Assembly (NCBI GenBank): GCA_031282505.1
Contig: JAITDP010000004.1
Span: 1-49,777, forward strand
Reading direction: 5' to 3'
Length of the DNA: 49,777 bases
From: Mycoplasmataceae bacterium
Lineage (GTDB): Bacteria; Bacillota_I; Bacilli_A; Mycoplasmatales; Mycoplasmoidaceae
Part shown: one piece after another, positions 26,518-49,777 of the stretch
Position numbering within the stretch: position 1 is the stretch's first letter
How the letters are laid out: each line of letters begins with the position of its first letter
Notes under the pieces: model-generated
Databases searched by the model: none
What the model was told of the DNA's origin: nothing
What the model saw: only the letters and a program-made list of their open reading frames with translations
Program-made: the position numbers and the translations under genes

Positions 26518-26565
26518 ATGGGTAAGCACACCTCCTTTCATAAATGTGCTTACACTATTATTTAA
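26518..26565 (+). CDS. Possible 15-codon leader peptide
   Basis: ATG (26518) begins 2 nt after TATAAT (26510-26515) and reads MGKHTSFHKCAYTII, ending TAA at 26563-26565, whose last base is the A of the next ATG (TAATG). The arrangement fits a coupled leader ORF. Transcription may however start at 26521-26523, inside the ORF, so it may not be translated. It coincides with a perfect hairpin described separately. Confidence 0.35.
   Translation: MGKHTSFHKCAYTII
26522..26553 (+). promoter_or_regulatory. Perfect hairpin with anti-Shine-Dalgarno-like loop in 5' leader
   Basis: GTAAGCACA (26522-26530) pairs perfectly with TGTGCTTAC (26545-26553), 9 bp, loop of 14 nt. The segment CACCTCCTTTC (26529-26539) equals the 3' tail of typical bacterial 16S rRNA. 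There is no T run after it, so it is not an ordinary terminator. It lies just downstream of TATAAT and upstream of the membrane-protein ATG at 26565. Confidence 0.6.
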
Positions 26566-27322
26566 TGGCTCTTTGAAATCTCCCAGCATTTATTTTTATA
26601 TCAGTTTTTGTTTTTGCATTATTACCATTTTTTATTTACGGATACTTTTGCAATAAAAAAATTACAAACATTGAAGAATTTTACACTCGAAATATATTAC
26701 CATTAAAAATAACGGGGGGGTCCTTCTCGCATGTGAACTAATACACGAAATAGCTAACGCCACTATAGATTTTAGTCCTGGTGGGTTTCCTTTTTTCTTT
26801 TCAGATCTAATTGTTTTTACTTTGTGTGGTTTTGCTTTTAGTAAAAAAGGAACAACTTTTAATTTATTAATGTATATATCATTTATGATGTTGGGCGTTG
26901 CTGAATTTTTTGCAATGTTAGTAGCACCTCAAATGATAATTAATTTTGACCGATTGTACAATGGAAGCTATGGATTTTCAACAGCATACGCTTTAATGTC
27001 ACACTTGTTATGCATTGCTTGTTTTATTTGGTTATGTATATACAGAATTGTAAAATTAGACAAAAAAGACATACGCAAAGCTGTTGGATTGTCTATTACA
27101 ATGCCAATAATTATAATGACATTGTCTTTTTTGTTTAAATGTAATTATGATTATTCCTTATCATTGGATGAAAATACTGGTTTTCACTACACTTATGATT
27201 ATATAAACTTAACTTATAGTCTTCTTTGTTTTTTTCCTCTTTCAATTATTATTTTTTTAACTTCTTGAGCTATATTAGTTAAAACAGAAAAATACTGCAT
27301 AAAAAAATATAATAATATTTAA
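26565..27322 (+). pseudogene. Membrane protein gene, frameshifted at a G7 tract (phase-off or broken)
   Basis: From ATG 26565 the frame is open through MALWNLPAFIFISVFVFALL and on to a G7 run at 26714-26720, then stops within nine codons. After the tract the -1 partner frame is open to TAA at 27320-27322, with hydrophobic helices (ILLACELIHEIANAT, FFFSDLIVFTLCGFAF, LIMFMML..-like segments). One extra G (G8) joins both halves into 252 aa with six or seven membrane helices, close in length and layout to the 251-aa protein at 31407. The pattern resembles small YwaF/TMEM164-type membrane proteins, weakly. The stop touches the tRNA-Lys gene. Confidence 0.75.
26714..26720 (+). repeat. Poly-G7 tract at the frameshift
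   Basis: Seven G in an otherwise AT-rich gene, about 50 codons after the start. Eight G (or five) restores the reading frame. Slippage site candidate, or a base-count error. Confidence 0.85.
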
Positions 27323-45879: not shown

Positions 45880-47475
45880 CTAGGGGCTTGTAGTTCAATT
45901 GCCTGGTAAACCTAAACCTTTCAAGTAAGTTAAAGCGGAATTAGGATTTCAACCACCTGTAACAGTTATGTAACCAGTACCGGATACATTTTCAAATACT
46001 TGGTAACCACCACTTCAAGATGGGGAAAAAATAAAACCTATCAAATCTATATTACTTAAATTTATACAACCAATGAAAGCCATAGCTTTGATATCTTTAA
46101 CTCCACTAGAAATTTTTAAATTAGTCATGTCTCAACAACCTTCAAATGCTCTTTCTTCAATTGTTAAAAAATTAATCACCGGAAAGTTTACTATTGTAAA
46201 ACCGCAATTTTCGAAAGCACCAATACCAATTTTTCTTACACTACTTGGAACATCAAATAGGCCATCAATATTTGAACAATTACAAAAAGCTCCATCGTTA
46301 ATTGTTATTACACTATCAGGAATGATCAAACTACTTGTAAATCCCAGACATCCATAAAATGAAGAATTACCAATATATACAACACTACTTGGAATTGTTA
46401 ATGTTCCCGTCAGACCTTCACATAATATAAATGCTTCATCACAAATTATTTTTGTTCCAGGTTGTAACGTCAATGGCCCACTAGGGGTTACACCAGTTGT
46501 CGATGTTACATTGTTATATTTTCCCAAACAATAATATGTTTTATTATTCTTAATGTAATATACATTATCACTATCACATGATATTTTATTATTAGGATAA
46601 CCCGCATCAGCCGTATATGTTCCCATTAAACCATTACAACCATAAAAAGCATAGTTGGCAATGCTTTCCATTGTGTTTGGAATAACTAGATCTCCACTTA
46701 AATTTCTACAACCATAAAACGCACCTTCTCCAATACTTGTCACGTTATTACTAATAGATAATTTAGTAAAATTAAAACAATTTGTAAAACAATAATTACT
46801 TATACTAGTAACACTATTTGGAATAATTAAATTTCCAGTTAAACTATTGCAATTCCAAAATGCACCTTCTCCAATACTTGTTACATGTTTTCCAATAGTA
46901 AGACTCCCTCTCAACCCTTCGCAACCATAAAACGCACCATCGCCGATACTTTGCACACTATTCCCAATAACTAAATTACCTGTGAATCCTTCACATTGTG
47001 CAAATGAATTTTGCCCTATGTCAACAATACTATTAGGAATAATTAAATTTCCAGTCAAATTATTACAATTATGGAATGCGTAGCCACCAATACTTGTCAC
47101 ACTATTTGGGATAGTTAAACTTCCAGTAAGAGTTTGACAACTTTCAAAAGCATATCCATCAATTCCTTTTAAAGGAATCTTCTTTCCTTCATAGGAAATG
47201 TATTTAGGAATTATTAAATTATCAGCTACGTATGAATAAGAAGAAGAAATACTAGCTGATGTATATTCCTCGTCAAAATCAATAGTTAATATATTTGATG
47301 TTATTGAAGAATCACCTTGATACCCCTTCCAATTAGTACCAGTATCATTTCCAACATAATCAGAAGGATCGTTTTCTTTATTGCTACATTGGTTTAAAAT
47401 TAAAAGTGGAGCAAATCCCCCCCCAAGAAAGACAGGGGTTGACAATAAAGTTAAAAGTTTGGCTTTACTTTTCAC
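45880..47475 (-). CDS. BspA-like leucine-rich-repeat surface lipoprotein (open copy, G8)
   Basis: 531 aa with TGA Trp, GTG start at 47475. The signal peptide MKSKAKLLTLLSTPVFLGGG-FAPLLILNQC ends at Cys30, a lipobox-like site (LNQC; -1 Gln unusual). About 15 repeats of the 23-residue TpLRR/LRR_5 type (LTIPNSVTSIGGYAF..CNNL) span about residues 95-460, interrupted at about 285-355 by a module YPNNKISCDSDNVYYIK..YYCLGKY. A C-terminal tail VTGGWNPNSALTYLKGLGLP ends the protein and is shared by the two upstream genes. Such proteins bind host or bacterial surfaces. TATAAT is 8 nt upstream. The poly-G8 tract encodes GGG in the signal peptide. Confidence 0.9.
47417..47424 (-). repeat. Poly-G8 tract in signal peptide (in frame)
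   Basis: Eight C on the plus strand, i.e. G8 on the coding strand, encoding Gly18-Gly20 of the LRR lipoprotein. Confidence 0.95.
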
Positions 47476-47504
47476 AATATTTGATTATATTAGCTTAAAA
47501 TTTA

Positions 47505-49627
47505 TTAAGAAGCAACAGATCATCCACCCGGTAAACCTAAACCTTTCAAGTAATTTAAAGCTGAAGTAGGATTTCATCCACCGGTAACGCTTATAGTTCC
47601 GCTTTGGTTACTTATTTCTGAAAAAGCACTTTTTTGTGTTCATGAAGGTTGTGTTAAAAAATTAGTTAAATTTATATGAGAAATTTCTGTGCTTTGAAAC
47701 GCATTCTCAAGAATATTCACTATGGTATTGGGAATGGTTAAATTCCCATTAAGGTTAACACAACTTCTAAATGCATAATTTCCAATATTGCAAACTCCGT
47801 CTGGAATATTCAAATTGCCGCTTATATTAGTGCAGTCATAAAAAGCATGTCCACCAATTGTTTTAGTTTGGGAAAGTAGTGTTAGTGTAGAAGGATTCGA
47901 ACCATCGCTAGTAACGTTTTCATAATGTCCTAAGCAATAATATTTATCATCGTTTCTAGCATAATACACATTGTCTGCACCATGTGATATTTTTTTATTT
48001 GGATATTCCGACGAATATGTTGCAATAAGACTTGAACAACTTAAAAATGCACAACTAAAAATATTTATAGAATTACTTTGAATAGTTAACTCATCAATGC
48101 TATAACAATTTTGAAATGCATAATTACCAATACTGGTTACAGCGCTTGGTATGTTTAAATTTCCATTTAATGAAGAACATTCAGCAAAGGCGTAACTTCC
48201 AATATTTGTAACACTATCCCCTATAGAAAGTTCAGTCAAATTAATACAATTATTGAATGCGTAGCCACCAATACTTGTCACACCATCTGGAATAGTCAAA
48301 CTTCCAGTCAAACTATTGCAATTATCAAATGCATGTGTGCCAATATTTTTAAGACTATTGTCTAAAGACAAACCAGTAAAATCGCATCCGAAAAATGCAT
48401 AATCTCCAATGCTTGTCACACTATTTGGAATATTCAAATCATCAGTTATTAAATTAGTACACCCACTAAAAGCCGCATACCATATCATTTTAGTATTAGA
48501 ATTCAAATTTAATGGTGCAACAGGATTATTGTGTTCAGTATCTGTATAAACATTATCATATTTACCTAAACAATAATATGTATAATCATTTCTAATGTAA
48601 TATACATTATCATTACTACATGATATTTTATTATTAGGGTATTCATTATCTGTATATTGTCCCATAAGACCACTGCATCCTCTAAATACTCTTTCTCCAA
48701 TTGATTCTATATTATCCCCAATAATAACTTCTGCTAAGGAACTACAAGACATAAATGCACCGTTACCAATGCTTGTGACGCTATTAGGAATGGTTAATGT
48801 TCCACTAAGTTTAGAGCATTGCACAAAAGCGCTAGTTCCAATATTTGTAACACTATCCCCTATAGAAAGTTCAGTCAAATTACTACATCCATCAAATGCA
48901 TAATTTCCAATGCTTGTCACACCATCTGGAATAGTCAAACTTCCTGTCAAATTACCATTAGATCTAAAAGCGTAGTCTTTAATTTCAATCAAAGGGAGAA
49001 TAGTTCCAAGGCTAGAAGATCATATATAAGATGGTATTGATAGATCGTGGGCAGAAAAATCATTATTGCAACTGCTAATACTACAACTTGTTACTACATT
49101 ATCTGTTTTATTTCAAACGATATTAATTGTACCTGTTCCAACCCCATATCAATCACTTCCATCTTCTAATCCACACATAGCAGCACCACTTAAGTAGATA
49201 TATCCCACATTATTAACTAAATATTCTTTTTCATTAGTATTTTTAATAATCAATGCTTGCACTTTAAAAGAAAAAGATGAACCATGAGTAGAAAAATCTT
49301 CCGCATCATAAGAACTTGGATCAAAACTTAATAATCCACTAGGTGTTACACTAAATGTTGATGAACTTAAATTATCACCATATGACTCAATTGAGTAATC
49401 AATTGTATAATCAGAAAGATTTACAATAGGATTATTATTTAATAGAACTTGAATTTGTTGAGTATGTACAGTATATCGGTCTATAAGGTCAATATCGCAA
49501 TCTACAAGAGTAAATTTTTCTTCGTCAGGTTTGACTACACCACACTGATTTAAAAATAACGGAGCAAATCCCCCCCAAGAAAGACAGGGGTTGACAATAA
49601 AGTTAAAAGTTTAGTTTTGTTTTTCAT
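47505..49627 (-). pseudogene. BspA-like LRR lipoprotein gene, frameshifted at G7 (phase-off)
   Basis: ATG 49627 begins MKNKTKLLTLLSTPVFLGG, nearly identical to the open neighbour, then with G7 shifts and stops after 23 codons. The next frame is open without any stop from FAPLFLNQC to TAA at 47505. With G8 the protein would be about 708 aa: lipobox-like Cys29, an N-terminal region of about 190 residues with an Ig-like look (TPSGLLSFDP, VGYIYLSGAAMCG), then about 14 LRR units with two YPNxKIS..YYCLG modules, and the shared tail VTGGWNPTSALNYLKGLGLP. TATACT is 6 nt before the ATG. Otherwise intact, so probably switched off rather than decayed. Confidence 0.85.
49570..49576 (-). repeat. Poly-G7 tract in signal peptide (out of frame)
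   Basis: Seven C on the plus strand (G7 coding). The surrounding 45 bases match the G8 copy at 47417 almost exactly apart from tract length. Confidence 0.95.
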
Positions 49628-49666: not shown

Positions 49667-49777
49667 TTATTGAGGACCAACGGTTCATGTGCTTGGTAAT
49701 TTAAAACCTTGTAAAAAAATTAAGGCAGCATCAGCATCCCAACCACCCGTAACAGTTATAGTTCCGTTAGCACTAAC
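49667..49777 (-). CDS. C-terminal end of a third lipoprotein of the array (partial)
   Basis: 36 codons before a TAA at 49667: ..NGTITVTGGWDADAALIFLQ.. matching the shared tail of the two LRR genes (TGGWNP.SAL.YLKGLGLP). The N-terminal part is outside the window. It is followed by 39 bp and the next gene's start, the same spacing style as the other pair. Confidence 0.75.

What the first reader, a model, noticed from the sequence alone, without database searches (positions are those of the whole stretch)
47417..49627. Poly-G switch inside the signal peptides of tandem LRR lipoproteins
Two tandem BspA-like lipoprotein genes share almost the same signal-peptide DNA. One has G8 and is open for 531 codons; the other has G7, stops after 23 codons, and becomes a clean roughly 708-aa ORF if one G is added. 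A pure G run is rare in this AT-rich genome, and its position before the mature protein means slippage would switch surface display on and off. Poly-G contingency loci are known in pathogens; use in an LRR lipoprotein array of a mollicute looks little described.
Basis: partly seen in the sequence, partly recalled or inferred. Interest (0 to 1): 0.88.

Follow-up and report, generated by a model that had tools for sequence, protein, structure and literature searches.

The report
Poly-G frame switches in surface lipoproteins
In this uncultured wall-less bacterium a run of 7 or 8 Gs sits inside the export signal of at least ten related surface-protein genes, so gaining or losing one G should switch each protein on or off; this known trick is here used across a whole gene family and its genus.

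Summary
Two tandem BspA-type LRR genes share signal-peptide DNA. One has G8 and reads 531 codons.

It is not isolated. The genome has 18 G≥7 tracts where about 1.7 are expected. Ten lie exactly 17 codons after the start of genes sharing this signal peptide: six in frame, four out of frame, shifted in both directions. All four out-of-frame genes keep 450-690 open codons. Across 12 genomes of the genus I classified 35 lipoprotein genes with the same design, 24 ON and 11 OFF. Two genus genomes share a 3-kb stretch whose only indel is G8/G9 in such a tract, breaking or opening a DNA methyltransferase gene. MutS is absent from all 36 genus genomes.

Best explanation: slipped-strand phase variation giving a combinatorial surface lipoprotein repertoire. 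Switching within one population was not shown, because no reads were available.

The mechanism is already known in mollicutes: poly-G in M. bovis P68 and M. agalactiae P48-like, and repeat-driven BspA switching in Ca. M. girerdii. What is new is the scale: a whole LRR family and genus, plus frame-broken methyltransferase and sugar-nucleotide genes.

The parts
47417..47424 (-). G8 tract, in frame (ON): ...PVFL-GGG-FAPLLILNQC
47425..47475 (-). start codon (GTG) and first 17 codons of the signal peptide, VKSKAKLLTLLSTPVFL
45880..47475 (-). BspA-type LRR lipoprotein gene, 531 aa, LRR_5 E=2e-82, phase ON
49570..49576 (-). G7 tract, out of frame (OFF)
49577..49627 (-). start codon (ATG) and first 17 codons of the signal peptide, MKNKTKLLTLLSTPVFL
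49550..49627 (-). 25-codon ORF actually readable from the start codon in the assembled (OFF) state
   Evidence: and sequence
47508..49570 (-). downstream LRR frame of the OFF gene, about 687 open codons, ends with the family's conserved C-terminus; LRR_5 E=5e-88 on part of it
49673..49777 (-). C-terminal end of a third tandem family gene, cut by the contig end; the last 115 bp of the window equal the first 115 bp of contig C8, whose gene has G8 and is ON
26714..26720 (+). third G7 tract of the window; separates a 56-codon membrane-protein start frame from a 202-codon downstream frame (gene about 26544-27322, just after dnaK)

Best explanation
Each gene of this LRR lipoprotein family carries a hypermutable poly-G tract inside its signal-peptide coding region, between the hydrophobic stretch and the lipid-attachment Cys. 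Slipped-strand mispairing at replication, not corrected because the lineage lacks MutS, adds or removes single Gs. With the right length (G7, G8 or G9, depending on the next bases) the lipoprotein is made and exported. With a wrong length translation ends a few codons after the tract and nothing reaches the surface. With at least ten independently switching genes a population would show a combinatorial mix of surface lipoproteins, most of them LRR proteins. Shown: tract position and purity, mixed frames among paralogues, intact downstream frames, the same design in sister species, one length-only indel difference between two assemblies, no MutS found, Lgt and LspA present. Inferred: switching within a clone, its rate, surface display, and benefit (adhesion variation, or escape from host immunity, phage or grazers).
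For: Ten genes with this signal peptide have a pure G7/G8 tract exactly 17 codons after the start; 6 ON, 4 OFF; breaks go both ways. G>=7 tracts: 18 observed, 1.7 expected. OFF genes keep 450-690 open codons ending at the family's C-terminus, and dN/dS for pairs with an OFF gene (0.37-0.67) overlaps that for ON pairs (0.39-0.48). GGG is 4.4% of Gly codons. ATGAAA-N25-55-G7 occurs 12 times in the own genome against 0 for the reversed pattern. 35 such lipoproteins in 12 genus genomes, 24 ON/11 OFF, with largely unrelated signal sequences. Two genomes share 3,039 bp at 99.8% identity whose single indel is G8/G9, closing or opening a DNA methyltransferase frame. Elsewhere in the own genome an N6/N4 methyltransferase and an NTP_transferase are each split at a G tract, with the two halves matching consecutive parts of one Pfam model. 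Frame breaks at G7-8: 6 of 14; at A7-9: 4 of 153 (Fisher 2e-5). MutS_I absent in 36/36 genus genomes, found in 11/14 controls. LspA and Lgt present. No inverted repeats in the locus.
Against: No reads or second isolate of this species, so no length mixture was seen. The genome is an 83%-complete draft in 10 contigs and the window itself ends in the array. Tracts of 7-8 Gs are short compared with many known switches. The G8/G9 pair is a shared, possibly mobile, segment and not the LRR family itself. The own-species lipobox (LNQC) does not fit the classical consensus.
Confidence: 0.88

Rival explanations
1. Assembly or sequencing error: all copies are really in frame, and the OFF states are miscounted Gs.
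For: Homopolymers are error-prone and this is a draft assembly in 10 contigs that breaks inside the array.
Against: A-runs of 7-9 rarely coincide with frame breaks (4 of 153) while G-runs often do (6 of 14). Errors in both directions are needed. OFF copies occur in several independent assemblies. The concentration of tracts at one codon position needs a reason even if some counts are wrong. An exact 115-bp contig-end overlap suggests a short-read graph assembly, which miscounts 7-8-mers rarely (inference).
Confidence: 0.07
2. Decay: the OFF copies are ordinary pseudogenes of an expanding LRR family, broken once and for good.
For: Gene families lose members. One family gene without a G tract (C6 about 42.7-44.5 kb) shows other frame damage.
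Against: In OFF copies the tract is the only break; 450-690 codons stay open and dN/dS is like that of ON copies. The same pattern occurs in other species and gene classes.
Confidence: 0.04
3. The tract works at the RNA or ribosome level: transcriptional slippage or frameshifting on the G run gives a constant low output from OFF genes, rather than genetic switching.
For: G7-G8 runs can promote polymerase slippage (own knowledge). The M. agalactiae authors also raise 'riboshifting' for P48-like (PMC2824730).
Against: A DNA-level length difference exists between two near-identical sequences. A mixture of tract lengths and frames among paralogues is what mutation, not programmed shifting, would leave.
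Confidence: 0.1
4. Recombination switch: the conserved 5' signal DNA is the crossover site for exchanging different mature LRR bodies, and the G tract is incidental.
For: Signal DNA is far more similar than the mature parts. C9:29219 and C9:27746 have identical 51-nt signals but 40% identical bodies, diverging right after the tract.
Against: No inverted repeats or invertible unit in the window part of the locus. It explains neither the pure G run nor the same design in unrelated signal sequences. It may act in addition.
Confidence: 0.1

Closest known systems
M. bovis P68 / M. agalactiae P48-like lipoprotein (poly-G; PMC2824730)
   Same: Mollicute surface lipoprotein with poly-G at the 5' end of the coding sequence, within the signal-peptide region; length differs between strains (8-10 G in M. 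bovis, nine giving full length).
   Different: There reported for single non-LRR lipoproteins (and 5'UTR poly-G in spma); here a family of ten genes sharing one signal peptide, and many lipoproteins across a genus.
Ca. Mycoplasma girerdii BspA-like proteins (PMC5476646)
   Same: BspA-type LRR surface proteins of a mollicute, switched by repeat-length frameshifts, with length variants shown in reads; also a type III methyltransferase with G8.
   Different: Switches there are mainly dinucleotide repeats, not poly-G in a shared signal peptide.
M. hominis Vaa and M. fermentans P78 (poly-A; cited in PMC2831843 and PMC3711429)
   Same: 5' homopolymer frameshift that turns a mycoplasma surface protein on or off (Vaa: A8 on, A7 off, about 1e-3 to <1e-4).
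   Different: Poly-A, single genes, not LRR proteins.
Poly-G contingency genes of Campylobacter, Helicobacter, Neisseria (own knowledge)
   Same: G-run slippage in surface and sugar-modifying genes and type III mod genes.
   Different: Different phylum, with tracts usually outside the signal peptide.

Membership tests
Homopolymer (poly-G) phase-variable contingency genes | Homopolymer well above chance, located in the coding 5' part | tested here: met
   18 vs 1.7 expected; 10 at codon 17
Homopolymer (poly-G) phase-variable contingency genes | Tract length decides the reading frame; ON and OFF both present | tested here: met
   own genome 6 ON/4 OFF, genus 24/11
Homopolymer (poly-G) phase-variable contingency genes | Length variation of the same tract between near-identical sequences, for the LRR family itself | tested here: inconclusive
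   Seen only in a methyltransferase gene of two sister genomes (G8/G9, the only indel in 3 kb); no second isolate of the window's species was available
Homopolymer (poly-G) phase-variable contingency genes | Reversible switching within a clonal population | not testable with these tools
   no reads, no culture
BspA-type LRR surface proteins | LRR_5 (PF13306) repeats over most of the protein | tested here: met
   E=2e-82 and 5e-88; nearest PDB chains are bacterial LRR proteins
Bacterial lipoproteins | Signal peptide with Cys shortly after the hydrophobic stretch; Lgt and LspA in the genome | tested here: met
   Cys in the family's invariant NQC motif; Lgt, LspA
Bacterial lipoproteins | Classical lipobox [LVI][ASTVI][GAS]C | tested here: not met
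   own species has LNQC in 10/10; in sister species 15/25 fit strictly, 25/25 a relaxed form
Vpma/Vsa-type invertible surface gene families | Inverted repeats and promoter inversion | tested here: not met
   no inverted repeats >=25 nt in the window part of the array; the rest of the array was not scanned

The most novel reading that the evidence does not exclude
In this uncultured mollicute genus the poly-G-bearing signal peptide has become a general switch module. Largely unrelated lipoprotein families acquired a G run at the same place, so much of the surface lipoproteome, plus sugar-modifying enzymes and DNA methyltransferases, is under combinatorial slippage control, and the near-identical leader also lets LRR bodies recombine.
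Probability: 0.45. Interest if true: 0.65.

Novelty: new member of a known kind. Interest (0 to 1): 0.52.

Why it matters
It gives a sequence-ready system for measuring surface switching in uncultured mollicutes: ten paralogues with the same tract at the same codon, and dozens more across a genus, can be read directly from metagenomic reads. It also warns that automatic annotation will call many of these lipoproteins pseudogenes or miss them. The frame-broken methyltransferase and sugar-nucleotide genes suggest that control by G tracts reaches beyond surface proteins.

Tried and rejected
Promoter scan of the array gave no more sites than shuffles. Invertible-promoter model rejected for the window part: no inverted repeats. 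Genus-restriction rejected: the order-wide scan found the same design in other genera, for example three lipoprotein genes within about 3 kb of one genome with G8, G10 and G11.

Full report
What is in the window. On the minus strand next to tuf lie tandem genes for BspA-type LRR lipoproteins (LRR_5, E=2e-82 and 5e-88). The gene at 47475-45880 has G8 at 47417-47424 and reads 531 codons with TGA as Trp. The gene starting at 49627 has G7 at 49570-49576. It reads MKNKTKLLTLLSTPVFLGGDLLRYF and stops, while about 690 codons of LRR protein lie in the neighbouring frame. The signal DNA of the two matches over 57 nt at 93%. A third family member begins at the contig end; the last 115 bp of the window are identical to the first 115 bp of contig C8, so the array probably runs on there with a G8, in-frame gene.

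Genome-wide. G runs of 7 or more occur 18 times in 501 kb. A first-order model fitted to the window predicts 1.7 (P about 3e-13); for 8 or more, 8 against 0.26. Ten of the 18 are in genes that share this signal peptide, always directly after codon 17: C1:41965 G7 ON, C3:49570 G7 OFF, C3:47417 G8 ON, C6:349 G8 ON, C6:1244 G7 ON, C6:48210 G8 ON, C8:1881 G8 ON, C9:31342 G7 OFF, C9:29219 G8 OFF, C9:27746 G8 OFF. Which length is in frame depends on the bases after the tract, so the same G8 is ON in some copies and OFF in others. Two of the ten (C6:349, C6:1244) carry short bodies of under 200 codons in which my LRR motif scan found no repeats. Two further family genes (C1:37.6 kb, C6:44.4 kb) have no G tract at that place, so the Gly run is not required by the protein. 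GGG is 21 of 482 Gly codons in 20 other window genes.

Are OFF genes dead? In the four OFF copies the tract is the only break seen. The downstream frames stay open for 450-690 codons, and the three checked end in the family's conserved C-terminus. dN/dS is below 1 in all pairs, 0.37-0.67 for pairs that include an OFF gene and 0.39-0.48 between ON genes. These values come from diverged paralogues and are only a coarse check.

Control for homopolymer error. In 118 kb of this genome held here, 6 of 14 classifiable G7-8 tracts coincide with a frame break, but only 4 of 153 A7-9 tracts (Fisher P=2e-5). T tracts lie between (9 of about 67), so the pooled A+T comparison is weaker but still P=2e-4.

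Other G tracts of the genome. At C4:11931 (G7) the two frames match profile positions 1-110 and 99-214 of the same N6/N4 DNA methylase model; at C7:4304 (G8) they match positions 1-67 and 75-240 of NTP_transferase. Both are single genes split exactly at the tract. The window's third tract, 26714-26720, splits a membrane-protein frame. In-frame tracts lie in two glycosyltransferase genes, a Cas9-like gene, a DnaB-like gene and a membrane-protein gene. Of all 18 tracts, seven coincide with a break.

Other species. G8 words occur in 30 of 36 genomes of the genus, from 0 to over 100 per genome. The pattern ATGAAA-N25-55-G7 gives 12 matches to 0 (reversed control) in the own genome, but in some sister genomes the control is as high, so loci were read one by one. 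In total 35 lipoprotein genes in 12 genomes have a G7-G10 run between the hydrophobic stretch and a Cys: 24 in frame, 11 out of frame. These were selected by having such a tract, so the ON/OFF ratio is descriptive. Of ten relatives scanned, two are LRR proteins (L091, L072) and seven have no Pfam family. Two genomes, G027 and G035, share 3,039 bp with four substitutions and one indel. The indel is G9 versus G8 ten codons into a DNA methyltransferase gene and decides whether it is readable. The two genomes' other G tracts are not shared, so this is probably a mobile segment. The design also appears outside the genus, for example three lipoprotein genes within about 3 kb in another family of the order with G8, G10 and G11.

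Mechanism. No MutS (PF01624) is found in any of 36 genus genomes, while 11 of 14 control genomes have it. That fits frequent uncorrected slippage. Lgt and LspA are present. The order Lys-rich start, hydrophobic stretch, G run, Cys means that a wrong length removes everything from the lipid anchor on. That step follows from the sequence; export, surface display and population switching are inference.

Prior knowledge. Nouvel et al. 2010 (PMC2824730) describe poly-G (G10 +/-1) at the signal peptide of M. agalactiae P48-like. They cite M. bovis P68, where 8-10 G differ among strains and nine give the full protein, and further poly-G at the 5' ends of lipoprotein genes. Ca. M. girerdii shows read-level switching of BspA-like proteins by dinucleotide repeats and a methyltransferase with G8 (PMC5476646). 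Poly-A switches are known for Vaa and P78. The finding is therefore a large new instance of a known kind. I did not find the combination of poly-G in a signal peptide shared by an LRR family in the papers I searched; most subscription papers are not in that library.

Limits. There are no reads, no second isolate and no name for the organism; the draft is 83% complete. The step from 'mixed frames among paralogues and species' to 'switching within one population' is well supported but not observed.

Noticed in passing
window 26714-26720 (+): A G7 tract just after dnaK splits a membrane-protein gene (56 codons upstream frame, 202 downstream), apparently another OFF switch in the same window.
   Followed up: partly
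G000 C4:11931 and C7:4304 (L063, L066): An N6/N4 DNA methylase gene and an NTP_transferase gene are each split exactly at a G7/G8 tract, the halves matching consecutive parts of one Pfam model.
   Followed up: yes
G000 C1:3980 (L060): A Cas9-like gene (REC lobe E=2e-37) carries an in-frame G7 tract; if it slips, CRISPR defence would be phase-variable.
   Followed up: no
G028 C14:14984, C16:14422, C17:8394, C35:14967, C37:14418 and 16535 (L193-L197): A sister species has a repeated intergenic element: C8-12, a 26-45-bp spacer (often TATAAT...CATGC), G8-9, then a conserved stretch with a small hairpin (agtgctataagcact). The C and G runs could pair or act as twin tracts; function unknown.
   Followed up: partly
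L132 and L133 (G035, G027): Near-identical 3-kb segment in two genus genomes with a DNA methyltransferase gene, differing by G8/G9 only besides four substitutions; probably mobile.
   Followed up: yes
L118:626-1546: A poly-G lipoprotein of a sister species has a weak match to the ADP-ribosyltransferase exoenzyme family (E=1.7e-5).
   Followed up: no
G000 C9:27746 and C9:29219 (L068): Two tandem family genes have identical signal DNA (and similar upstream DNA) but diverge right after the G tract, as if the leader had been copied over.
   Followed up: partly
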